From Eunapius fragilis (Eukaryota; Porifera; Demospongiae; Spongillida; Spongillidae): 64,000 nucleotides of DNA. Within the stretch, counting starts at the first letter, position 1. Every line of letters starts with the position of its first letter. Shown here in pieces: positions 17,163 through 62,078 of this stretch. A program made the position numbers and the translations under genes. The notes beneath the pieces are model-generated. The model did no database searches and was not told the origin of the DNA. It was given only the letters and a program-made list of their open reading frames with translations. The stretch covers positions 7,631,118 to 7,695,117 of the forward strand of contig OY811980.1 of assembly GCA_963681505.1 (NCBI GenBank). Reading direction: 5' to 3'.

Positions 17163-18985
17163 TGAGGACAGAGGACATACTGTTGGGACAGAGGACATAC
17201 TGTTGGGACAGAGGGACATACTATTAGAACAGAGAGACACACTGTTGGGACAGAGGACACACTGTTGGGACAGAGAGACACACTGTTGGGACAGAGGACA
17301 CACTGTTGGGACAGAGGGACACACTGTTGGGACAGAGGACACACTGTTGGGACAGAGGACACACTGTTGGGACAGAGAGACACACTGTTGGGACAGAGGA
17401 CACACTGTTGGGACAGAGGACACACTGTTGGGACAGAGGGACACACTGTTGGGACAGAGGGACACACTGTTGGGACAGAGGACACACTGTTGGGACAGAG
17501 GACACACTGTTGGGACAGAGGGACACACTGTTGGGACAGAGGGCACACTGTTGGGACAGAGGACACACTGTTGGGACAGAGAGACACACTGTTGGGACAG
17601 AGGACACACTGTTGGGACAGAGAGACATACTGTTGGGACAGAGGGACACACTGTTGGGACAGAGGACACACTGTTGGGACAGAGAACACACTGTTGGGAC
17701 AGAGGACACACTGTTGGGACAGAGGACATACTGTTGGGACAGAGGACACACTGTTGGGACAGAGGGACACACTGTTGGGACAGAGAGACACACTGTTGGG
17801 ACAGAGGACACACTGTTGGGACAGAGAGACATACTGTTGGGACAGAGGGACACACTGTTGGGACAGAGGACACACTGTTGGGACAGAGGGACACACTGTT
17901 GGGACAGAGAACACACTGTTGGGACAGAGGACACACTATTGGGACAGAGGACATACTGTTGGGACAGAGGACACACTGTTGGGACAGAGGGACACACTGT
18001 TGGGACAGAGGACACTGTTGGGACAGAGGACACTGTTGGGACAGAGGACACTGTTGGGACAGAGGACACACTGTTGGGACAGAGGACACACTGTTGGGAC
18101 AGAGGACACACTGTTGGGACAGAGGACACACTGTTGGGACAGAGGACACTGTTGGGACAGAGGACATACTGTTGGGACAGAGGACATACTGTTGGGACAG
18201 AGGACACACTGTTGGGACAGAGGACACACTGTTGGGACAGAGGACACTGTTGGGACAGAGGACACACTTTTGGGACAGAGGACACACTGTTGGGACAGAG
18301 GGACACACTGTTGGGACAGAGGACACACTGTTGGGACAGAGGACACACTGTTGGGACAGAGGACACACTGTTGGGACAGAGGGACACACTGTTGGGACAG
18401 AGGACACACTGTTGGGACAGAGGGACACACTGTTGGGACAGAGGACACACTGTTGGGACAGAGGACACACTGTTGGGACAGAGGACACTGTTGGGACAGA
18501 GGACACACTGTTGGGACAGAGGACACACTGTTGGGACAGAGGACATACTGTTGGGACAGAGGACACACTGTTGGGACAGAGGACACACTGTTGGGACAGA
18601 GGACACACTGTTGGGACAGAGGACACACTGTTGGGACAGAGGGACACACTGTTGGGACAGAGGACACACTGTTGGGACAGAGGACACACTGTTGGGACAG
18701 AGGACACACTGTTGGGACAGAGGACACACTGTTGGGACAGAGGACACACTGTTGGGACAGAGGACACACTGTTGGGACAGAGGACACACTGTTGGGACAG
18801 AGGGACACACTGTTGGGACAGAGGACACACTGTTGGGACAGAGGACATACTGTTGGAACAGAGGGACATACTGTTGGGACAGAGGACACACTGTTGGGAC
18901 AGAGGGACACACTGTTGGGACAGAGGACACACTGTTGGGACAGAGGACACACTGTTGGGACAGAGGACACACTGTTGGGGTAGAA
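17163..18985. repeat. 20/21-bp minisatellite, about 89 units
   Basis: Units ggacagaggacacactgttg (20 bp) and a variant with one extra g (21 bp) alternate irregularly over 1.8 kb. The flanks are colinear with 51640-51800, where only a single unit is present (51757-51780). Because the unit has no stop in any frame and the 20- and 21-bp units shift phase, all six frames stay open; these are not proteins. Confidence 0.95.
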
Positions 18986-19440: not shown

Positions 19441-20192
19441 ACCAGGCACAGCTCAAACCAGCCCAAGGCACATGTGAAGGTCTTCACACAGGATAAGGAG
19501 GGGCAGGAAGGAGGGGCAGGAAGGAGGGGCTTCCATTTGTGATAATAGGTTAATCCCTCTAGATGTAATGTTTACATGGGAGGGCCCCATCCCTACTCAT
19601 GAGGGAGATAGTCCATACTGCGGTTCTTTCCTGTTTCCTCCATGGCAACATCTCTGCAGACTGATGTGGGATCAGAGGACACTTGTCCCAGGACCTGCAC
19701 AGGTATACAGATGATGAATTGACCAATCAAATCAGAGATGGAATGTCACAAGTACTTCAAACTGAGATTCCAGTCTAGTTTTATTTGACACAGGATCCTT
19801 GGTTTGGAATGAGTTCAGAGAGACATGGATATCAAGAGACCTGGACCTGAGTGTTTCCACACATCACTGACTCCAGAATGGCATCATGGAGAAATATGTA
19901 CTGATCCTGTGAAAGAGGAAGTGGGAGGGGCATGAGAGAGGGGTGGGAGGGGCTACAGGAGGTGACCTACAGGTGTCTGAACCATCTTCATCCTCTGTCG
20001 TCTCATCTTCCTGATGGTACCGGCTATGTCCACCATTCCCTCCTTCTCTATCTGCTCCAGGACTGTGCCTATCGCAATCAGTGTTCCCGTGCGCCCCACA
20101 CCAGCACTGTAGGGTCACAGGGGTCACCATGACACCCCTCTCCCTCCTCCCCTCACCCACCTGCAGTGTACCAAGAGGGGTCCCCTGCCCCC

Positions 20193-20358
20193 AATCAGAA
20201 TTGTACCTTGCCCATTTGTACTAAGTGTTGCTATGCATGTGATATATATTTTAGTGCAGTCTATCTTCTTAGTGGTCCCCAGTCCTTAATGCTTGGCTGC
20301 TCCAATCAGAATTGTACCTTGCCCATTTGTACTAAGTGTTGCTATGCATGTGATATAT
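20193..20358. repeat. Direct duplication inside RPTP-B
   Basis: A stretch of about 53 bp beginning aatcagaattgtaccttgcc occurs at 20193 and again at 20305. It stands where RPTP-A has the rest of its WPD-loop exon, so it marks the rearrangement that removed that exon. Confidence 0.75.
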
Positions 20359-22344
20359 AACAAGACTATTTTAGTGCAGTCTATCTTGGTGGTGTAAATG
20401 TTGGCTTTGCCATGATTGTGAACAAACGACTACTTACCTACCCCACACTACACTAACTGTTATTGTTATCATAGCAACGGTGGAAGGACTGGGGCCCATG
20501 CTGCAACATTGTACAAAGCATGGTGCTAGCATTTCAATCTACTGACATTCATTCCAAAAGGAACATTTTTTGAACACTTACAGCAGTAGTTGTGACAATA
20601 ACTAGCCAATAGAATTTATCCACAGCCCTGCACTAACTACTACTGTTGACACAGCTAATGGCTAGGAGTGCATAATTCTATTTGCAACCCACCATATGCA
20701 TTAGAAAAGCTTACATATGTAACCAAGGAATGTAAAAACACTTTTAGTGAAAACATAAATGGCAGTCATATCACTGAACAGAACAACAAAATGAAGACAG
20801 GTCATTCTGGTGCCACACCCACAGTATCCCACAGTATCCCACAGTATTCTGAGCATCAGTTGCCCACTAAAACTCACAGACACTTCAAAGACCCTGATGA
20901 CATAGTCTGCAAATTCCTTATTCTCAGTGGTGGCTACAGTGAAGGGTCCATACTTCTGATGGCCTGACTCTGTTGAGTACTGCTGACACTTGATCTTGCC
21001 ATCCTCCTTGATGTTGGTCACCATGGCGATGGAAGGCACACCCTCCTGCCACACCAGCCTCCAGAAGTCCACAATAGTAGGTGGAAGAGGACCTTGGAGA
21101 GAGGGGGAAAGATGGAGGAGGTAAGAGGTCACATGCTTCACGAGAGGTGAGCTACCTTGAGTGGCTATGAACTTCTTTGGCCCTGAGTATCCCTGTTAAG
21201 AAGGAACACATCTTGTGGTTCATGGAACACACCATAAATTCAAGTGCTCACAGAAATGTAAGAAGCATTGATGTAGCTCCTCTGACAGTCTTGTTGACCC
21301 TCCATTGGAGAGAGCTGGATTAGATTCTCATCATCCGTAGGCATGAGGGTGTGGCACGTGATCCCTCCTCCCCAGTCCCCTACACCCTAAACTCACAGGG
21401 CACAATGTTGGCAAATCTGTTGAGAGTCTTATTATCAGCACTAGTGGCCACAGTGGAGGGACGTTTGGTACTGGACTCCAGAGACTAATTAAGGGCACAT
21501 TGGGGAGGATGGAAGCCTTGTCATCCTCTTGTTCCCATGGAGATAGCCACACCCACTCACCCTGTCAACATTGTTTTTCTCGTGATTCTTTGATACATAC
21601 TTTCCAAACTTGGCCAATGGTATTATTGGTATGGTCATCTGGTAGTCCACAGGCAGCTCTATCTCACTGCCGTACACACCAAGGGACACTTTACGTCTGT
21701 CCACACCTAGTTCATTGGCCACCTCCAGTTCATACACACCAGCTTGTTCCATCTCTGCTGTGTGGATGACAAGGCTTCCATCCTCCCCAATGGTGAGGGA
21801 GTGGTCTGTGGTGACCTTGGTCCCATTATGGTACCAGGTGAAGGAGGGCCTTGAGTATCCTGTGACACGAACATTGAAGACCACCTCCTCCCCGTCCACC
21901 ACATCGCAGTTAGAGGGGAACTCTTTAATGGTGGGAGCTGGAATGAGAGGAGGTATTGGTGAGTGGAGGGAAGGAGAGGGGGAGGAAGGGAATGGAGGGG
22001 AGGAGGAAGGTACCTGTCTTTGCAATGTTAAGATATTGAAGTTCCGCATTATCTTGGGTGCTAACCATGGTCTGGGCACCGGGCATGGTCTGGGGACTTG
22101 CAGTAGTATGAGGAGGTGGTTTGGTGGGAGTTGGTTTTCTGAAAACTACCAACACATGTGACATCCCATAATACCCCTCCCTAAGCTCTCCCTCCCAGTG
22201 CAAGATCTTATGCTATTAATTATTTCCTGCATAACTTAACTTTGGTTGGATATTAAGTCCTCCATTACAGCCATGTTACCATGCAACTTACTTTTTGTCC
22301 ACAACTTCATAAGTGACACCTTCAGCATTAAGCGGAGTACTGGG

Positions 22345-22445
22345 AACGGTGCCTCTGGGTGGAGAGTGGGAGGAGGGAAGGGAGAGGAGAGAGGAAGGGA
22401 GAGGAGAGGGGAGGGGAGGGAGGGGAAGGGGAGAGAGAGGAGAGG
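22345..22445. repeat. Purine-rich tract in RPTP-B intron
   Basis: Almost pure A/G on the plus strand with irregular gggagagg repeats; a similar purine tract lies at 22670-22740. On the coding (minus) strand these are polypyrimidine stretches upstream of splice acceptors. Confidence 0.6.
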
Positions 22446-22904
22446 GTAGAGATATACTTTATTTCGTCATTTGAGGAATTATTACACAGAAAATATGCTC
22501 ACAGCATACCTGTTACAGTATAGTACATACCCCTATGTGTAGGCATTGCGGGAACTCAAGGGTGTGTGTATGGATGCGTGTGAAGTAGTGGATATGCATG
22601 AGGTACATTGGGAGAGGAGGTGTATGGGAGAGGTGAAAGTTGGAGGACGTGGGTAAGAATAATGGTGAAGAGAGGTGGAGGGGAGAGAGTGGAGGGAGGG
22701 GAGGGAGAAGGAGGGGAGGAGAGAGGGAGGAGGGCTGTGAGAATAAGGAAGGTTCAAATGGGAACTAATGTCTGGAGGTGGAACATGAGAGAAGTATAGA
22801 GGGAGAAGGAGGTGGTGGGTGTGTATGTGAGCGTACTTTTTGTCACCCACAGCTTCATAGGTCACTGCTTCAGACTTATAAGCACTGGGTCTAAGGAGAG
22901 TGAT

Positions 22905-23284
22905 AGGTTATGGTATGAGGAGGTGATGGTCATGGTATGAGGAGGTGATGGTTATGGTATGAGGAGGTGATGGTCATGATGTGAGGAGGTGATGGTCATG
23001 GTATGATGAGGTGATGGTCATGGTATGAGGAGGTGATGGTCATGGTGTGAGGAGGTGATGGTCATGGTATGAGGAGGTGATGGTCATGGTATGAGGAGGT
23101 GATGGTCATGGTGTGAGGAGGTGATGGTCATGGTATGAGAAGGTGATGGTCATGGTATGAGGAGGTAATGATCATGGTATGAGGAGGTGATGGTCATGGT
23201 ATGAGGAGGTGATGGTCATGGTGAAGGTCATGGTGTGAGGAGGTGATGGTCATGGTATGATGAGGTGATGGTCATGGTATGAGG
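22905..23284. repeat. 22-bp minisatellite, about 17 units, in RPTP-B tail intron
   Basis: Reverse complement of the array in the matching intron of R1 and R4, which supports common descent of these tail exons. Confidence 0.88.
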
Positions 23285-23559
23285 AGAGGTTGACATAATC
23301 GATCCTAGTGTCATTAATAATGTTCACTGACTTCTCCATGTCATAGACTGCTTCTGGTTTGGTAGCTCCATTTTCCCTACGTCTGTGGACAATGGTAATG
23401 AATTAAACATACTGCTGGGCAGCCTACCTCAGGAGGAGTATTGCTATGGCAACAATGATGACAATCAACACCACAACCACCAGTGCTCCAATGATCCCAC
23501 CGATTATACCACCAATGGAGGAGGAGGAGGAGAAGGAGGAGGAGTAGGACAAGGCTGTA

Positions 23560-23915
23560 GTAAGGGGGGGGCTTGGGGGGGCTTAAGCCCCCCCAAAATT
23601 TTGGTCCAGCATATTATTTATAATAGGATACACGTTGATGTTATAGTACGCGCGGTACCGCGCGTACTATAACATCAATGTGTATCCTATTATAAATAAG
23701 TCAAATCACAAAAATTTGGAGGGGGGGGGGGTGCTAATTAATATTCATGATCTTGATAAAACGATGCATCGCGCGGTACCACAAATTGAACACATTCCGG
23801 TATTGCAAGCGCCCGTAAATTTAGAACGAGAAAGTGTCGTCAACCGTCGCGATGCATCGTTTATCAAGATCATGAATATTAATTAGCCCCCCCAAATTTT
23901 TGTGATTGACTACGG
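23560..23915. mobile_element. Two adjacent foldback elements interrupting the RPTP-B stalk/TM exon
   Basis: The left unit contains a near-perfect palindrome of about 80 bp centred on ggtacc near 23657 (arms atttataataggatacacgt and so on). The right unit (about 23700-23912) has arms of about 60 bp reading caaaaatttgg, a G run, and gctaattaatattcatgatc, inverted at the other end. Both are bounded by cccccccaaaatttt-type ends. They split the (TCC)n Ser-rich region of the RPTP-B exon. No coding capacity. Confidence 0.7.
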
Positions 23916-25789
23916 CCATGTAGGAGGAGGAGGCGGAGAAGGAGGAGGAGGAGAGGAGGAGGAGGAGAAGGAGGAGGAGGAGGAGGAGGAGGAGGCAGCA
24001 CTTGGAGAGGATATGGTAGTGTAGGAAGAGGGTAGCCACTTGAGATGAACACCAAGGTATTAACTGTGGTGGAGATACAAACACTGAGTAGATTACACAG
24101 GAGGAGAATTGCAGGGGTATATGTGGATATGCAGGAGTATACATGGATATGCAAATGGTGTGGGTTAGGTAATGTATTTACTGACTTACTCATCACTTTA
24201 TCAATCATTATGGCCATTTCAGTTTAGCAGCTAAATATTTAATAGGTATGGTGGAATTATAGAAGTGCGTTTAATATACTGTGTGTGGGATGACAGTAGG
24301 ATGCGATGCTTTCAAAGTGAATATCCAACTGCTGCTGGATAACCTTGGATATTCCTGTATACCCCCTGCATACAAAAACATCATTATACGTAAATGCATC
24401 CTAATGTTCAATACATTCTCCATCATCCATCATACCATACATTATTAACCACCATAAGAACAATAATCGGATACCATTTATCAGCCATGAAGCTGCCTCA
24501 CATGAGGCATAGCAAACATGACATCTAACGAAAACATCTGCTAACATGGTTTCAAAAAGATAGAAAATCATGTGCCTATAATATTAGTCCCCCCACCTAG
24601 AATGTCCCACCCCAAGGCATCATCCTCTACTGTGTGTCCATTACATTATTAACAATTATTTCAGCTAGCCAACATGGTCAAGAAAACATACCACTCTGAG
24701 AAATAAAATGAAGTGATTGGGCAAAATATAAAAATGAAAATGAGCTTCTGTTACTTTCATTTCTTCATGGAAATGTACGTACAAGAAGAGCACTATCGTG
24801 TCCTTAAATAAGGACTGAGAGCTGGTAAAAATGCACCTCTTGTTGTGATATGGCATATTTATCCAATAATTGCATCACCATTGCATACCTAAAAAGGCAC
24901 TCTGAGATGGCATATAAGTGCCCACAGCTATGATAGAGATGTTGTACTGAACCCCAACTTGAAGGTTGGTTAGGACATAAGAGGTAGAAGTGGTTGAACC
25001 ACCACTTGTACTTGGGACTCCATTAGCCACATAGTAGATATCATATCTGCTCACTGGACCACCTGAGGTTGGTGCAGTCCAAGAAACACTGACAGATGTG
25101 GGACCACTGTCCACCTGTTATACCCTCACACACCAGAGGATACTGGGCTGCTGTGCTATTTAGTGTGCTCACTCTTGGTGTAACTGCTGAGAGGAACACC
25201 AGGCTGTTGTTGGCAATCATTACAAACAGTTCATTCTGATTCCAGGTGATCCTAGGTTGGCCTGTGAGAGGGTATGATGTAATCAACACTGGGATAGTAC
25301 TTTTAGTGGTGCGTCTAAATGGCAGGTGTGAAGCTTTAATTTATGCTTTCCTCAACCATAGATATCAGGAGTGGTACAGTCTATACGCAAGGTTAAAAGT
25401 CCACTACTTCTACAACTGTGTGCGTATGCGCGTGTATACGCCTGCATGTGTGTATGCTTATGTGTGCATCTGCGTGCGCTTAAAGCTTTGCAGCGATGAA
25501 ACTGACAAATAATTTAGCGGCATGGGTTCTTTTTTTTTGAAGGGCCGAAGGCGTCAACGATCGGAAAAAACAAACACACATGTGGGGAAGCTGGTCGGCG
25601 AACGTCTAAAATAGACTAGCCTGCGGCTAGGTGTGGAAGCGCACAAAGAACGATGCAAACGATGAACACATACATGATATGATCTCTAACTTTAGAGAGA
25701 TGCTTCTGGGAACGAGGCCGTAATTTATTTAAATTTAATAACAGATTCAGATTGCAATTTATATACAACATGCATGTGGCAAAATACAT

Positions 25790-54139: not shown

Positions 54140-54296
54140 CACACAACACCAACCTGTACGACTTGAAATTAAAAAAAAAAATCACTTTTAAAAATTTGCA
54201 CACACATATACATAACATTCTGATATAAAAAGGGTTCTACTGAATTTGCAAACATGAGTAAAAAAAATCATCTCACATCAAGATCATAGCCATTAT

Positions 54297-55952
54297 TCAT
54301 CGAAAGTTAGAGTACTGGTTGAACTGATCTAGGAAGACCACCGCTACCTTAAAGATTAGCTGGTACTGGTCCTGTATCCATGGAAATATAAACAGATAAC
54401 CCTATGGTTCAATAGAGTACCAAGTACAGCTTACCACAGTGAGCACGGCTCCAGGCTTATGGGTGCGAATAGCCTTTACTATCTGGAACACATCCACCAC
54501 TCCTTCTGCCTTACACTGCTGGGTCACCATGGTGATGGCACAGAACATACCAGACCTTCCCACAGTGTTACTGGAGGGGGGAGGAGGGAGCATCATGTGA
54601 CCTCACATGATCCAAAGGGAGCTATGGTTGGGATGGGGAGGAGGTACCTGCAGTGTACCACAATGGGGTGGTTCCCAGTCCTTCTCTGCACCTTGTCCAC
54701 CTCTTCAATGACATCAGTGATGGTGGCAAGGTTAGCACACACCCCATCAGGTGTCCAGTTGGTGATGTGGAACTGGGTCACTTGATGTATTTGTGTACTC
54801 TGCAGATGTTTAGTTGATCACAGAGGAAGACCATACCCCATGCCCCACTCTACACACACCATGGCCCCCTCCACACACACCATGACCCCCTCCACACACA
54901 CCATGGCCCCCTCCACACACACCATGGCCCCCTCCACACACACCATGGCCCCCTCCACACACACCATGCCCCCCCCCCCCCCTTTCACACACAGCTAGCA
55001 GCCTATAACTCATACTTGCTATGGTTCAACATAATGTGTGTACACACACACAGGTGGGTATGTCTAACCTGGTTACAAGGAAGCCCACATTGCACACACA
55101 CCTCTAATCATGAAAGGTGACATCTGATCTGGTCCATTGCTCCATTCCATACCCGGACAGAATTCCAAATTCCCCAACACACCCACCATGCCCACACCCA
55201 CACAACACCCACCCACACAGAGCCAACACATCAACAGTGGCCACACCCACCTTGGCAGCAGCCAGGTACAGTGTCCTTGTGGTGTAGCCATCATGGACCT
55301 CCTGCCCTCCACTCTCTATGGTGAACTCTCCATAGCTCTCTATCCCTTGGTCTGGCCAGTACTGGTGACACACCTCCTGTATACCACATGAGAATAATAA
55401 TGGTCTGGGCACCAGTTCAGGCTCCACCCACCTTCCCCTCCTCCTGGAGCTGGGATAACATGACAATGGCTCCACATTTCCCGTCAGACACCATCTTCCA
55501 GAAGTCTCTACATGTGGACTTCAAGGGACCTTGGGCTATAATGAAGGCCTTCTGTTGCTTATATCCCTGGGGTGGGAGGAGCAATGTAGTCATGGCAACC
55601 CTAGCCTTAATGACAGGCAATAACCAGTACTGACATTAACAAAGCAGGCATTGATGTAATCAGGATATTCCTGTTTGAGGATAACACGAGACCTGTCAGC
55701 TGCACACAGAGAGAATGTGCACATGATGAAAATCTAACACACTGACCAGGCCATTTCCTCATCCCTCTCCTCTCCTTCATTCTACCTCCCTCCCCTCCCC
55801 ACCCTTCCTCCTTCCTCTCCCTCTCTCCTTTCTCTCCCTCTCCCCCCTCCCTACTCACGGGGGAGGTAGTCTATACTGCGGTTCTTTCCTGTTTCCTCCA
55901 CGGCAACATCTCTGCAGACTGATGTTGGATCAGGGGACACTTGTCCCAGGAC
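54297..55952 (-). other. PTP D2 domain of RPTP-A (seven exons)
   Basis: Begins after VLGQVSPDP...[10 protein letters not shown], then [38 protein letters not shown] and [10 protein letters not shown], ending with [14 protein letters not shown]. In the signature HCxAGxGR[ST]G, Ala is replaced by Asn and Gly by Thr, while Cys and Arg remain. The WPD loop has an inserted Thr. Low or absent activity is inferred from family knowledge of D2 domains. Confidence 0.8.
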
Positions 55953-58900
55953 CTGCACAGGTATACAGATGATGAATTGACCAATCATATCAGAGATGGA
56001 ATGTCACAATGTACTTCAAACTGAGATTCCAGTCCAGTTTTATTTGACACAGGATCCTTGGTTTGGAATGAGTTCAGAGAGACATGGATATCAGAGACCT
56101 GGACCTGAGTGTTCCCACACATCACTGACTCCAGAATGGCATCATGGAGAAATATGTACTGATTCTATGATAGAGGAAGTGGGAGGGGCATGAGAGAGGG
56201 GTGGGAGGGGCCACAGGAGGTGACCTACAGGTGTCTGAACCATCTTCATCCTCTGTCGTCTCATCTTCCTGATGGTACCGGCTATGTCCACCATTCCCTC
56301 CTTCTCTATCTGCTCCAGGACTGTGTCTATCGCAATCAGTGTTCCCGTGCGCCCCACACCAGCACTGTAGGGTCACAGGGGTCACCATGACACCCCTCTC
56401 CCTCCTCCCTTCACCCACCTGCAGTGTACCAAGAGGGGTCCCCTGCCCCCATCATGTTGGGACCTGACCTTCCTGTGGAAGGCCAAGAGGGAGGTGGCAT
56501 ACTCTGGTACCCCATGGTCAGGCCAGCCAGTGAAGTGATACTGGATCACCTTCCTTTTGGGTACATCTGACCCTGACAGCTACGGGAGGAGGATGAAAAG
56601 GTGGAAGAACTGGGGAACATGCTGTGACACAGGGTGGAAGGACTGGTTACTGTAAACCATATTGCACATAGCAGAAGTCCAACCATCCAGCCATTTACTA
56701 CAAGCAATAGTATTCCCAAAGGTACAGGCATAGCCACCCATGAAAACTCACAGACACTTCAAAGACCCTGATGACATAGTCTGCAAATTCCTTATTCTCA
56801 GTGGTGGCTACAGTGAAGGGTCCATACTTCTGATGGCCTGACTCTGGCCAGTACTGCTGACACTTGATCTTGCCATCCTCCTTGATGTTGGTCACCATGA
56901 CGATGGAAGGCACACCCTCCTGCCACACCAGCCTCCAGAAGTCCACAATAGTAGGTGGAAGAGGACCTTGGAGAGAGGGGGAAAGATGGAGGAGGTAAGA
57001 GGTCACATGCTTCACGAGAGGTGAGCTACCTTGAGTGGCTATGAACTTCTTTGGCCCTGAGTATCCCTGTTAAGAAGGAACACATCTTGTAGTTCATGGA
57101 ACACATTATCAATTCAAGTGCTCACAGAAATGAAAGAAGCATTGATGTAGCTCCTCTGACAGTCTTGTTGACCCTCCATTGGAGAGAGCTGGATTAGATT
57201 CTCATCATCTGTGGGCATGAGGGTGTGGCACGTGATCCCTCATCCCCAGTCCCCTACACCCCAAACTCACAGGGCACAATGTTGGCAAATCTGTTGAGAG
57301 TCTTATTATCAGCACTAGTGGCCACAGTGGAGGGACGTTTGGTACTGGACTCCAGAGACTAATTACGGGCACGTAAGTGTTAAAGTCCTCTTGTTCCCAT
57401 GGAGATAGCCACACCCACTCACCCTGTACTGATTGTTGAATCCAGCATTGTTTTTGTCATGGTTATTGTACACATACTTTCCAAACTTGGCCAATGGTAT
57501 TATTGGTACGGTCATCTGGTAGTCCCCAGGCAGCTCTATCTCACTGCCGTACACACCAAGGGACACCTTACGTCTGTCCACACCTAGTTCATTGGCCACC
57601 TCCAGTTCATACACACCAGCTTGTTCCATCTCTGCTGTGTGGATGACAAGGCTTCCATCCTCCCCAATGGTGAGGGAGTGGTCTGTGGTGACCTTGGTCC
57701 CATTATGGTACCAGGTGAAGGAGGGCCTTGGGTATCCTGTGACACGAACATTGAAGACCACCTCCTCCCCATCCACCACATCACAGTTAGAGGGGAACTC
57801 CTTAATGGTAGGGACTGGAATGAGAGGAGGTATTGGTGAGAGGAGGGAAGGAGGGAGGGATGGGGAGGGGGAGGGAGGGAATGAGAGGAGGCATCAATGA
57901 GTACATGTGTTGTCCTATGGGTTCGTGCAAAGGGATGGTCTAGCATCATGTGATAATACAATCAGGGGTGCCCAGTATCATGTGATCATTTGCGGGGTGT
58001 GACCAAGTGTCACATGATCATCCAATGGGGTCATGTGATCATCCAATAGGCCATGTGATCATCTAATGGGGTCATATGATCATCCAATAGGGTCATGTGA
58101 TCACCCAATGGGGTCATGTGATCATCCAATGCAATAAGGTCATGTGATCATCCTACCTTGACGAGCAGGTTCCCCAGAGATGGTAGCATAGGCTTCCTCC
58201 TCCCCAGTCCTCTCTCTGCTGGCGTCCACTTCCTCAGTAGGTGAAGCCGCTTTCTTGACCATCTCGTAGGGGGGCGTGGTCACAGATTTTGTGGCATAGT
58301 TACCTCTACGTCTACATGTGTCAGTGGTGTGTGTGATGTGTGAGAGGTGTGTGATGTGTGGGAGGTGTGTGATGTGTGGGAGGTGTGTGATGTGTGGGAG
58401 GTGTGTGATGTGTGGAAGGTGTGTGATGTGTGAGAGGTATGTGATGTGTGGGAGGTGTGTGATGTGTCAGAGGTGTGTGCCCATATATCAGTGGTGTGTA
58501 CATGTATGCATGTGGGAGGTGTGTGTGTGGGTAGCTATTGCCACACATGACCACACTAATGGCTGCTCTAACCTTAAGGTAATCACTATGACAACTATGA
58601 TTACAACCACAATCAGTACGACCACGCCCACAAGCACTCCTCCCACTGCCCCTCCAATGGCAGCACCAGAGCTGGCAGCACTAGAGCCAGTTCCCCCTAT
58701 GAGGTGGGGAGGGGAGGAAGGAGGGAGGTGGACTTGGTGGTAAGATGATGGCAATGTAACTTACCTGGTGTGATGGTGGGTGTGTCACTTCCTGATGAAG
58801 GGATGTCTCCATTGTATGACTGTCCTGCAATGGTCACCATGGCTACCACACTGAACTGGTACACTCCATTAGGACTGAGGTTGGTGATGTCCCCAGAGGT

Positions 58901-61900
58901 GGTGGTTGGTGGGAAGGTCTGACTGATGTACCCACCCGACTGCCTCTTTGAAGTATTGGGAAGAGAACGATAATATACAGTGTACCCTGTAAGGATGCCA
59001 TCTTGAGGGAGCCACTGGACAGCCAGCCAGGACACTCTGACAGATGTTGTGTTGGTGGCTACTACCTTCACCCCTGTCACATTGGCTGAAGGGTATATAA
59101 GACCAGACCATAAACAAATCAAAATACCTTCAGTACCCCCTCCCCCCCCCACCAAGGGTAAATAAGTAACACAAACAAACAAACATTGTGAAAATACAGT
59201 ACTCATCCAATCAATTCTACTGGGTGTGGCTAGAACAAAACAATTTTGCTCTGTCATTATACCAGCAGTTGATGTGTTGCTGTGACAATAAGGGGTAGTG
59301 TAGGCTATGTATGGTGGTCCTACACACACCCCCTCACATATCTCACAGTACATTGTCACAGAGGCCTAAACTATGAATACTATTGAGGTATGCTATTTAT
59401 CTTGGTCAAATATTATCCCTGGAAGAGGACCAACGTTCCTCACATCTACAATGTCACAGGAGGCCTAGTGCCTTAGCAACATAGCACCGTAGCATTGGCT
59501 ATACACTTGTACACTCACGTATAGCTGCAGTACTGGTCTGTACTTGTTGTGGTGTCCCTGGTCCTGTGATGGTGTAACCAACGACAGAGAAGGTGTAGGG
59601 GGTCCTTGGTACCAGTCCTGTTATTGTCACTGGGGGTGTGGTTGTGTTGACTATTCCATTGGTGGAGTAGGTCACCTGATACATGATGATCACCCCATTG
59701 GGGGTAGGAGGGGGTAGCCATGTGAGTGTGATGGTTGTGAAGGTATTGTTGAAGGCTTGTAGTCCACTCACTGGACCAGGTGCTAGTGTGGAGAGAAATA
59801 ATTCACCTCTTCAATACTCATCCATCTCACACTTACCACTTTGCTCAGTCACCACAAAGAGAGGAGAGGTATAAGGACCCATGGCTCCATCACTGTTGAC
59901 TGCTGACACCTCAATGGAGTAGTTGGTATAAGGAGCCAGTCCAGTCACAGTCACTGCCCTACCAGAGGTAGCTACTGTCCCTCTCACACCACTGGTCACA
60001 GGTCCATAGAGAACACTGTACCCCATTATCACACTGTTCTGGTCCACACAGGGGACTTCCCCCAAACTGATGGTGACAGTGGAGGAGGTCTTGTTCACTT
60101 CAGTGAGGCTGTTAGGAGGAGCAGAGGGAGCTGTTGGGGAGAGAAGGGAAGGGAGTCAGCCATCTTGAGATGAGATCATCCACCTCACCTGCTGAGGAGG
60201 TGTTGACCATCACACTAGCTGGAAAGCTGCTTGCCCCACCAATGGAGGCAGTGAGGGTGAGGGTGTAGGGACTGAACTCCTGCAGTCCAGTGATGGTGTA
60301 CTGGGTAGCAGTGCCAATGGACACATTCCCACCACCACCACCACCACCACCAGCACATGGTCCCTGGTAGGTGTAGGAGAGGGTGTAGGTGGTACCTATC
60401 TCTCCAGCAGTCTGTGACCACATGACAGTGATAGATGTTGAGGTGACCTGTGCCATGGGTGAGGGGGTTGATGGTACTGGGGAGGAGGGAGAGGGTAATG
60501 GTTAAGTACCATAACTATAATACAATGACTCACTCGTGACACTAACACTCTGAGATGGAATATAAGTGCCCACAGCTACGACAGAGATGTTGTACTGAAC
60601 CCCAACTTGAAGGTTGGTTAGGACATAAGAGGTAGAAGTGGTTGAACCACCACTTGTACTTGGGACTCCATTAGCCACATAGTAGATATCATATCTGCTC
60701 ACTGGACCACCTAAGGTTGGTGCAGTCCAAGAGACACTGACAGATGTGGGACCAGACTGCACAGCAGTGACACCAGTGGGTGGGGCAGGAGGACCTGTAT
60801 AGAGGTACATGTCTATAGGTACAAGACACTCTTCATAAGCAGTACTTACCTGGTACACTGAGGGATGAGGTAGTGGATCTTTGACTTAGAATAGGCCCTG
60901 TATTACACACTTGTGGTGAACCAGTGCAGCTGATTAGGGGAGAGGTTATAGTGGTGACAGTGCATGTGTACATCCCAGGTGCTCTCCCAGTCACAGTCAG
61001 GGTGTTGTTGTAAGTAGATGTTGGTCGATCTGTCACTATAGTATAGTTACCACCATTCACTGGATATCCATCTATGGTCCACTGCACAGTTGTAGGAGGA
61101 GAACTAGTGCTGGTGCAGGTCAACTGGAACACTAGTGGATTAACATTTGTAGGTGTCAATAGCTGAAACTGGACACCTCCTGTGATGTTAGGACCATCTG
61201 TGGGAGAGTCAACACTTCCATAACACATGTGATGTACTTTCCTCTCTACTTACAAGTGGCTGCTACAGAGAGATTATAGTTAGTAGTTCCAATTATGCCT
61301 GATGCATTAGCTAGTGTGAGATCAGTGTACATTCCAACACAGAGTGTGATGGTGGTATTGGTACAACATTGAACACCATGTGGGAAGTCAGAAGGAGTTC
61401 CACGATACAGCTCTACTCCTCGTGACACATTTCGTTGACCCAACCCTCCAGGGGTGGAAGGAGGGTCTGGTGTTGCTAGTGGAAACAGGACTCCATTTGG
61501 TTGATACCACTGTCCACCTGTTATACCCTCACACAGCAGAGGTTTCATGTATGCTGATTGGCTGGATGTGCTCACTCTGTTTGGTACTGCTGAGAGAGAC
61601 CACAGGCTGTTGTTGGCAGCCATCACAAACAGTTCATTCTGATTCCATGTGATTCTAGGTTGACCTGTGGGAGGGTATGAAATGATCAACCCTGGGATAC
61701 TAGCTCAGTGGTACATGTCCGTGCCAGTTGTTAGGGGTTTTATGCTTTTACATGCATGCAAATGCTATATCCCTCCACCATATATTACTACTATGCCTCA
61801 AAGCAATGTCAAAGGCACGCTATTACCTGTGTGCATGTGCGCGCGTGTATGCGTCTGCATGTGTGTAGGTCTATGTGTGCATCTTCGTGCGCTTAAAGCT

Positions 61901-62078
61901 GTGTGGCACAGCGATGAAACAAGTACTAGTAATTTAGCAGATGGATGTGGGCCGGGCCGAAGGCGTCAACAATCGAGCCCAACAAACATGATAGAAACTG
62001 GTCCGCGAACGTATAAACAGGCTAACCTGCGGCTAGGAGTGGAAGGACACAAAGAACGATACAAGAGAACGCATACAT
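54297..62078 (-). CDS. RPTP-A: Ig/FN3 receptor tyrosine phosphatase with cytosolic Ig domain
   Basis: Predicted receptor tyrosine phosphatase of 1520 residues. Exons, read downward: 62078-62027 (signal [18 protein letters not shown]), 61664-61254, 61197-60850 (Ig), 60794-60534, 60476-60189, 60130-59837, 59782-59519, 59085-58765 (five FN3), 58696-58573 (TM), 58311-58157 (juxtamembrane, PPYEMV and EAYATI), 57814-57423 (Ig plus PTP wedge), 57358-57271, 57208-57126, 57066-57030, 56966-56752, 56579-56419, 56364-56229, 56164-56015 (D1), 55952-55859, 55699-55635, 55566-55432, 55376-55251, 54799-54648, 54570-54435, 54371-54297 (D2, stop TGA). Phases fit at every junction. D1 has KCQQYWP, WPDHG (D1132) and [10 protein letters not shown] (C1164), so it should be catalytic; D2 has WTPDG and [10 protein letters not shown] and is probably regulatory, as in vertebrate RPTPs. 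The signal and ectodomain match R1-R5. Confidence 0.88.
54843..54968. repeat. 21-bp minisatellite, 6 units, RPTP-A intron
   Basis: Unit accatggccccctccacacac inside the intron between the D2 exons ending at 55251 and starting at 54799. Confidence 0.85.
56015..57358 (-). other. PTP D1 catalytic domain of RPTP-A (seven exons)
   Basis: Starts [10 protein letters not shown] and NRFANIVPC (matching the N-R-Y-x-N motif), then [71 protein letters not shown]. The signature loop is split by an intron after the second base of the Ser codon. All residues usually required for catalysis are present. The acidic WPD Asp and nucleophilic Cys make it the only complete phosphatase domain in the window. Confidence 0.85.
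57423..57814 (-). other. Cytosolic I-set-like Ig domain joined to PTP wedge in one exon
   Basis: Residues about 840-970 of RPTP-A. I-set landmarks: [46 protein letters not shown]. Both canonical Ig cysteines are replaced (Val862 and Leu910). The same exon continues into [12 protein letters not shown], the usual start of a PTP D1 wedge, so no membrane segment can separate Ig and PTP. The RPTP-B copy (21937-21561) shows the same substitutions. Confidence 0.82.
58007..58152. repeat. 21-bp repeats with nested palindrome, about 7 units
   Basis: Unit ggggtcatgtgatcatccaa plus t, each containing the palindrome atcatgtgatcat-like core. It lies in the intron between the juxtamembrane exon and the cytosolic Ig exon of RPTP-A. 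Confidence 0.75.
58340..58480. repeat. 18-bp minisatellite, about 8 units
   Basis: Unit gtgtgtgatgtgtgggag in the intron between the TM and juxtamembrane exons of RPTP-A. Confidence 0.85.

What the first reader, a model, noticed from the sequence alone, without database searches (positions are those of the whole stretch)
57271..58696. Receptor phosphatase with an Ig domain on the cytoplasmic side, lacking the Ig disulfide
Seen: in RPTP-A the TM exon (58696-58573) and juxtamembrane exon (58311-58157) splice in phase to an Ig exon that runs without a break into the PTP D1 wedge. Both disulfide cysteines of the Ig are replaced (Val862, Leu910), in RPTP-A and in the sister RPTP-B. Known: RPTPs of the LAR and kappa/mu groups keep Ig domains outside the cell, while cytosolic Ig domains such as those of titin and myosin-light-chain kinase do not need the disulfide. 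Inference: an intracellular Ig module fused to a receptor phosphatase, perhaps positioning D1 or dimerising it. I know of no described RPTP with this order. An N-G-T sequon at 877 would be unused in the cytosol.
Basis: partly seen in the sequence, partly recalled or inferred. Interest (0 to 1): 0.82.

Follow-up and report, generated by a model that had tools for sequence, protein, structure and literature searches.

The report
Sponge receptor phosphatase with cytosolic Ig
A family of sponge cell-surface enzymes that remove phosphate from proteins appears to carry an immunoglobulin domain on the inside of the cell, next to the enzyme part, and in most members that domain has lost the sulphur bridge usual for such domains outside cells; what it does is untested.

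Summary
RPTP-A (window 62078-54296, minus strand) reads through 25 exons with canonical splice sites: signal peptide, N-terminal and Ig-like regions, five FN3, one TM, a juxtamembrane exon, an I-set Ig, the wedge, an intact D1 and a degenerate D2. The Ig lies between TM and D1; both disulfide positions are replaced (Val862, Leu910). RPTP-B is not independent support: it is a recent copy with a broken acceptor and truncated D1. Better support: two old paralogs in the same genome (C16, C17) show the same order in frame without either cysteine, and so do proteins of Ephydatia, Halichondria, Geodia, Amphimedon and (one cysteine kept) Dysidea. In the homoscleromorph Corticium the Ig keeps both cysteines. 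None of the 178 other PTP proteins examined (capped lists) shows it. Ig-to-D1 spacing is nearly fixed while ectodomains differ. It is a sponge RPTP subfamily with a cytosolic I-set Ig tied to the enzyme core; what the Ig does is inferred only. Public protein sets already hold the order, and a 2001 Geodia paper (title recalled, not read) probably described one. New variant of a known kind, interest about 0.55.

The parts
62027..62078 (-). signal-peptide exon, [18 protein letters not shown], phase 1 donor
   Evidence: resembles the N-termini of Ephydatia P0001 and P0005
60850..61664 (-). N-terminal exon (61664-61254) and exon with an ectodomain Ig-like domain (61197-60850)
   Evidence: Pfam Ig_2 at 160-219
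58765..60794 (-). five FN3 exons, each entered in phase 1
   Evidence: Pfam fn3, 5 stretches
58573..58696 (-). TM exon ([29 protein letters not shown]), phase 1 in, phase 2 out
   Evidence: hydropathy 3.76
58157..58311 (-). juxtamembrane exon, RRRGNYATK.. with tyrosines YEMV and YATI; phase 2 in, phase 1 out
57423..57814 (-). cytosolic I-set Ig exon running into the wedge helix; Cys positions Val862 and Leu910, Trp kept
56229..57358 (-). PTP D1, six exons, WPDHG and [10 protein letters not shown] intact
   Evidence: Pfam PF00102 at 970-1204
55859..56164 (-). D1-D2 linker, two exons (56164-56015 and 55952-55859)
54296..55699 (-). PTP D2, six exons, degenerate [10 protein letters not shown], ends with the stop codon
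   Evidence: PF00102 has two stretches in the protein
19603..25259 (-). RPTP-B: partial copy with the same Ig exon (21935-21566), broken D1b acceptor at 21334, truncated D1e

Best explanation
RPTP-A is a type I receptor tyrosine phosphatase of a sponge subfamily in which an I-set Ig domain lies in the cytosol, between the juxtamembrane stretch and the D1 wedge. Shown: the gene anatomy, the same order in two old paralogs and in other sponges, absence of both disulfide cysteines in most members examined, a complete I-set fold prediction without them, and a nearly constant Ig-to-D1 spacing. Inferred: the cytosolic side (from topology), and that the Ig belongs to the enzyme half and not to the ligand-binding half, working as a cytosolic docking module of the titin/MLCK kind that holds D1 to a partner (a substrate or a cytoskeletal protein). 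Exchangeable ectodomains (FN3, Sushi, Ser/Thr-rich) would feed one conserved Ig-D1-D2 core. I put the docking role at about 0.4 and direct control of D1 by wedge contact or pairing at about 0.3; the confidence below is for the anatomy plus a role tied to the enzyme.
For: Gene model and phases. I-set match. C16 and C17 paralogs, 41% and 30% identical in the Ig, join TM to Ig in frame by hand reading, C16 with the same intron phases 2, 1, 0. 44 of 222 proteins have an Ig within 130 aa before a PTP, 38 of the 44 with a TM within 150 aa upstream, 0 of 44 with a predicted TM between. P0125, 1468 aa on a 4845-base contig, joins TM, JM and Ig and leaves about 440 bases for everything else, less than the roughly 1 kb of introns between TM and Ig at C16, so it is probably a transcript. 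Sequons per 100 aa in 20 proteins: 1.89 before the TM, 0.52 between TM and D1, 0.64 in the PTP part. Both cysteines absent in 36 of 38 Igs, Trp in 38 of 38 (many are near-copies). Ig end to PTP start is 58-65 aa in 19 of those 20 proteins (P0011: 88), TM to Ig 32-63 (edges). In six pairs among this sponge, Halichondria, Geodia and Amphimedon the Ig keeps 38-49% identity, the ectodomain 9-31%. Geodia P0126 (Ig-D1-D2) has no predicted TM and opens with MGNKSS, which fits a myristoylation site (motif recalled).
Against: No localisation, cDNA or partner data exist here. The Ig-wedge linker is predicted disordered and the Ig-D1-D2 model has low pTM. Against Dysidea the Ig keeps only 24% (ectodomain 17%, TM+JM 25%), so its conservation is not deep everywhere. 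Outside the 20, spacing is 67 in P0126, 77 in P0178, 80 in P0138 and 39 in P0012 (some models are damaged). Cluster copies are too young for a selection test: mean pN/pS 0.63, median 0.39. Dysidea keeps one cysteine and Corticium both, so bridge loss is not required for the position. The calcareous Sycon row P0181 shows no Ig. P0125 as a transcript rests on contig length.
Confidence: 0.68

Rival explanations
1. The Ig acts on D1 directly: it packs against the wedge or pairs two receptors and so sets phosphatase activity.
For: Nearly constant Ig-to-PTP spacing in 19 of 20 proteins (edges) and one exon encoding Ig plus wedge helix.
Against: Low-confidence linker and pTM 0.49 in the Ig-D1-D2 model; the tool gave no contact map to inspect.
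Confidence: 0.3
2. The Ig is a passive spacer left over from exon shuffling through phase 1 introns; its cysteines decayed because the cytosol reduces them.
For: The ectodomain exons, the TM+JM pair as a unit and the start of the Ig sit at phase 1 introns, which favours shuffling. The Ig is only 24% identical to that of Dysidea.
Against: Ig at 38-49% identity in six pairs of four genera, above ectodomain (9-31%) and TM+JM (18-33%); Trp in 38 of 38 and a WYHxG...GVY pattern shared by most.
Confidence: 0.2
3. Artefact: the TM exon and the Ig exon belong to different transcripts, and the Ig is extracellular or starts its own cytosolic protein.
For: No cDNA of this gene was available; Geodia P0126 and Amphimedon P0178 models begin without a TM.
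Against: Models in other sponges, a probable transcript contig, conserved phases and in-frame joins at C16 and C17.
Confidence: 0.05

Closest known systems
LAR / R2A receptor phosphatases (PTPRF, PTPRS, PTPRD)
   Same: Ig and FN3 modules, one TM, wedge, two PTP domains; the sponge Ig matches their ectodomain Igs in sequence too.
   Different: In the rows shown their Igs lie before the TM, and none of them has an Ig between TM and D1. Three LAR rows form a starred D1 clade of their own; Nematostella LAR is unplaced.
Cytosolic I-set Igs of MLCK, titin, myotilin, telokin, palladin
   Same: Among the nearest folds (best Foldseek match MLCK1 IgCam3, 9.9e-10); cytosolic (recalled).
   Different: They sit in muscle or cytoskeletal proteins, not beside a TM and a phosphatase. 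Extracellular Igs (MuSK, Sidekick, DCC) fit as well by VIA-align.
Sponge RPTPs in databases (Ephydatia, Halichondria, Geodia, Amphimedon, Dysidea, Corticium)
   Same: Same TM-Ig-D1 order.
   Different: Ectodomains differ: FN3, Sushi (PF00084) or Ser/Thr-rich. Named LAR-, alpha- or kappa-like, hypothetical or uncharacterised.
Geodia cydonium RPTP (Gene 2001, title recalled; nothing seen)
   Same: The title as recalled lists catalytic, Ig-related and FN3 domains, so it is probably the same subfamily.
   Different: Not checked; whether the Ig was called intracellular is unknown to me.

Membership tests
Receptor-type tyrosine phosphatase (tandem PTP) | signal peptide, single TM, two PTP domains | tested here: met
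Receptor-type tyrosine phosphatase (tandem PTP) | D1 catalytic motifs ([15 protein letters not shown]) | tested here: met
R2A (LAR) subtype | Ig domains only before the TM | tested here: not met
   one Ig lies between TM and D1
R2A (LAR) subtype | D1 groups with LAR-type D1 | tested here: not met
   D1 sits in a 100/98 sponge group; three LAR rows form another starred group (37 chosen rows, midpoint root)
I-set immunoglobulin domain | I-set profile and fold, Trp kept | tested here: met
Canonical extracellular Ig | B-F strand disulfide cysteines | tested here: not met
   V862, L910; both absent in 36 of 38 Igs
Sponge cytosolic-Ig RPTP group | D1 groups with other sponge Ig-before-PTP members | tested here: met
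   100/98 group with demosponge members; Corticium joins at 92/74 only; P0147 and P0188 fall outside
Sponge cytosolic-Ig RPTP group | Ig physically in the cytosol | not testable with these tools
   topology inferred from sequence only

The most novel reading that the evidence does not exclude
Sponges hold an old receptor-phosphatase subfamily whose enzyme core is Ig-D1-D2, in which an Ig module adapted stepwise to the cytosol: both cysteines in Corticium, one in Dysidea, none in the other demosponge members examined. It serves as a cytosolic docking or control domain under exchangeable ectodomains, in places as a TM-less, possibly lipid-anchored enzyme. I know of no other animal group that uses an Ig this way in an RPTP.
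Probability: 0.45. Interest if true: 0.72.

Novelty: new variant of a known kind. Interest (0 to 1): 0.55.

Why it matters
How the juxtamembrane wedge controls RPTPs has long been debated in vertebrates, where as I recall that stretch holds no folded domain. Here a folded module sits at that point at a nearly constant distance from D1, so its effect on D1 can be tested directly. The family also offers a natural series of Ig domains with two, one or no bridge cysteines on the reducing side of the membrane, which makes the folding cost of that bridge testable. In this genome 15 close matches to the Ig exon (one of them the broken RPTP-B, one partial) lie on one chromosome, a lineage expansion whose use in signalling or recognition can be asked about.

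Tried and rejected
RPTP-B as independent support: rejected, broken recent copy. Selection test on 13 C10 Ig exons, 78 pairs: uninformative, mean pS 0.039, pN 0.025. A homology search with the Geodia Ig-wedge region alone returned 5 proteins. Single-protein searches of the window's genome with the C16, C17 and Corticium Igs showed matches that run into the wedge only at C10, C16 and C17 (best candidates only); Ig-only matches elsewhere, such as C10 1.26-1.34 Mb near PTP exons, were not followed. A single origin of the cytosolic Ig is not settled: the label needs 5 changes on the D1 tree, starred branches force at least 3. Two rows labelled no-Ig (Dysidea P0148, the first Corticium PTP pair) begin inside the wedge and may be truncated; Amphimedon P0147 and the unnamed P0188 fall outside the main group. 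No TM was found within 2.5 kb upstream in 2 of 13 fetched C10 loci, L003 and L009; splicing was not modelled in any of the 13. Foldseek and VIA-align do not separate cytosolic from extracellular I-set Igs.

Limits of the lists: one search listed 120 of 7992 matches and one search listed 120 of 658, so absence outside sponges means absence in these capped lists. Six named sponge rows among the 178 show no Ig: Geodia P0015, P0024, P0152, P0153 (named partial), Dysidea P0148 (starts in the wedge) and Sycon P0181 (no TM predicted).

Literature: searches listed no paper that I could identify as describing an RPTP with an intracellular Ig. Beyond the listings I saw passages of PMC6208332, PMC5336234, PMC3192720 and PMC5793068; none of the passages shown describes it. 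Most subscription papers are not held, so this is weak evidence of absence.

Rows dropped: the cysteine count used 36 of the 44 proteins plus C16 and C17. Left out were P0007, P0008, P0013, P0032, P0124 (Ig damaged, cut or gapped), P0122 (same Ig as P0121), P0147 and P0188 (cut at the N-terminus). P0188 keeps the second cysteine, and P0147 has a Cys near the first position. The sequon and spacing counts used 20 of the 44. The tree used 37 D1 rows of my choice.

Full report
What is there. On the minus strand RPTP-A reads from a signal-peptide exon (62078-62027) through 24 further exons to a stop at 54296, with GT-AG at the internal boundaries. The product is about 1520 aa: signal peptide, an N-terminal region, an Ig-like region, five FN3 domains, one TM, a juxtamembrane exon, an I-set Ig, a wedge helix, D1 with intact motifs and D2 with [10 protein letters not shown].

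Is the Ig inside the cell. Besides the signal peptide there is one strong TM, and it lies before the Ig. Four Arg/Lys follow it within 15 residues and none precede it within 15. In 20 of the 44 proteins, sequons number 244 in 12876 aa before the TM (1.89 per 100), 21 in 4007 between TM and D1 (0.52) and 65 in 10226 in the PTP part (0.64). No protein of 44 has a predicted TM between Ig and PTP. This is inference from sequence; nothing was localised.

Is it more than one gene. In the same genome the Ig query matches 15 places on C10 at 84-100% identity, C16 at 41% and C17 at 30%. C16 and C17 were read by hand. In both a TM exon joins the Ig part in frame, C16 with intron phases 2, 1, 0 as in RPTP-A, and both lack the two cysteines. 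A TM-coding stretch lies 0.6-2.1 kb upstream of the Ig in 11 of 13 fetched C10 loci, without splice modelling. RPTP-B is a damaged recent copy.

Is it in other animals. Three homology searches (the large ones listed the best 120 each) gave 221 proteins; with RPTP-A 222 were scanned. In 44 an Ig lies within 130 aa before a PTP, and 38 of these have a TM within 150 aa upstream. Those with a species name are sponges: Ephydatia muelleri, Halichondria panicea, Geodia barretti, Amphimedon queenslandica, Dysidea avara (Keratosa) and Corticium candelabrum (Homoscleromorpha). I take the rows named Em... as Ephydatia. P0125 and P0188 bear no species name. The other 178 show none; most of those named are LAR, alpha/epsilon, kappa/mu or CD45 types, and six are sponge rows, most of them partial. 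The same profile did find ectodomain Igs of LAR-type proteins, so it is not blind to ordinary Igs. P0125, 1468 aa on a contig of 4845 bases, joins what lies apart at C16 and so is probably a transcript (its TM was matched by eye). The window's species was not determined; it is close to Ephydatia (83-87% over residues 822-1250 in the six best rows).

Cysteines. In 38 Igs that cover both positions the first is Val 26, Pro 8, Cys 1, Tyr 1, Leu 1, Gly 1; the second is Leu 28, Phe 5, Tyr 3, Cys 2; Trp is present in 38. Many rows are near-copies within Ephydatia and Halichondria. Corticium keeps both cysteines and Dysidea the second. This suggests, but does not prove, stepwise loss after the domain became cytosolic.

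How it might work. In six pairs among this sponge, Halichondria, Geodia and Amphimedon the Ig keeps 38-49% identity, D1 59-65% and ectodomains 9-31%; against Dysidea the figures are 24, 55 and 17%. The Ig-to-PTP distance is 58-65 residues in 19 of 20 proteins, while TM-to-Ig varies from 32 to 63; outside the 20 a few models deviate (39 to 80). Halichondria members bear Sushi domains, RPTP-A bears FN3, and one Amphimedon member is Ser/Thr-rich. The Ig therefore seems to go with the enzyme. A Geodia Ig-D1-D2 protein without predicted TM opens with a possible myristoylation site (motif recalled). I favour docking of a cytosolic partner (about 0.4) over direct control of D1 (about 0.3); neither is shown.

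Evolution. On a D1 tree of 37 chosen rows the demosponge members form a 100/98 group with Dysidea, and Corticium joins at 92/74. One origin within sponges is plausible but not established: the label needs 5 changes, two other Ig-bearing rows fall outside, and two no-Ig rows may be truncated.

Novelty. The class (RPTP) and the domain (I-set) are known, and the order already sits in public protein sets. My searches listed no paper on it, in a library without most subscription papers. A 2001 paper on Geodia cydonium, recalled by title, probably described a member. The points I have not seen stated are the conserved cytosolic position across demosponges and Corticium, the nearly fixed spacing to D1 and the graded loss of the disulfide.

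Noticed in passing
window 19603-25259 (minus): RPTP-B is a truncated, pseudogene-like duplicate: acceptor acgg before D1b, D1e mostly missing, no D2 exon found nearby.
   Followed up: yes
window about 23526-22020 (minus): RPTP-B has a different TM and several juxtamembrane stretches with ITIM-like tyrosines (IDYVNL, VTYEAV, VTYEVV, LQYLNI; motif recalled); splicing not modelled.
   Followed up: no
G000 C10 5.5-8.5 Mb: Large cluster of PTP exons (counts are lower bounds), many without a match to the cytosolic Ig query nearby: a strong RPTP expansion.
   Followed up: partly
G000 C10:7748000-7757900 (L015): Locus with a 99% identical Ig exon and the same TM type about 63 kb from RPTP-A, a recent segmental duplication or an assembly duplicate.
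   Followed up: no
window about 17200-18970: Long minisatellite with a unit like ctgtcccaacagtgtgtcct.
   Followed up: no
P0126 (Geodia barretti, 785 aa): Ig-D1-D2 protein with no predicted TM, N-terminus MGNKSS, and a D2 that reads HGVNTVSRCG, so D2 lacks the catalytic Cys.
   Followed up: partly
P0188 (unnamed eukprot protein, 559 aa): Partial Ig with its second cysteine shortly before the wedge; organism unknown, D1 groups with a hemichordate row at 93/90.
   Followed up: no
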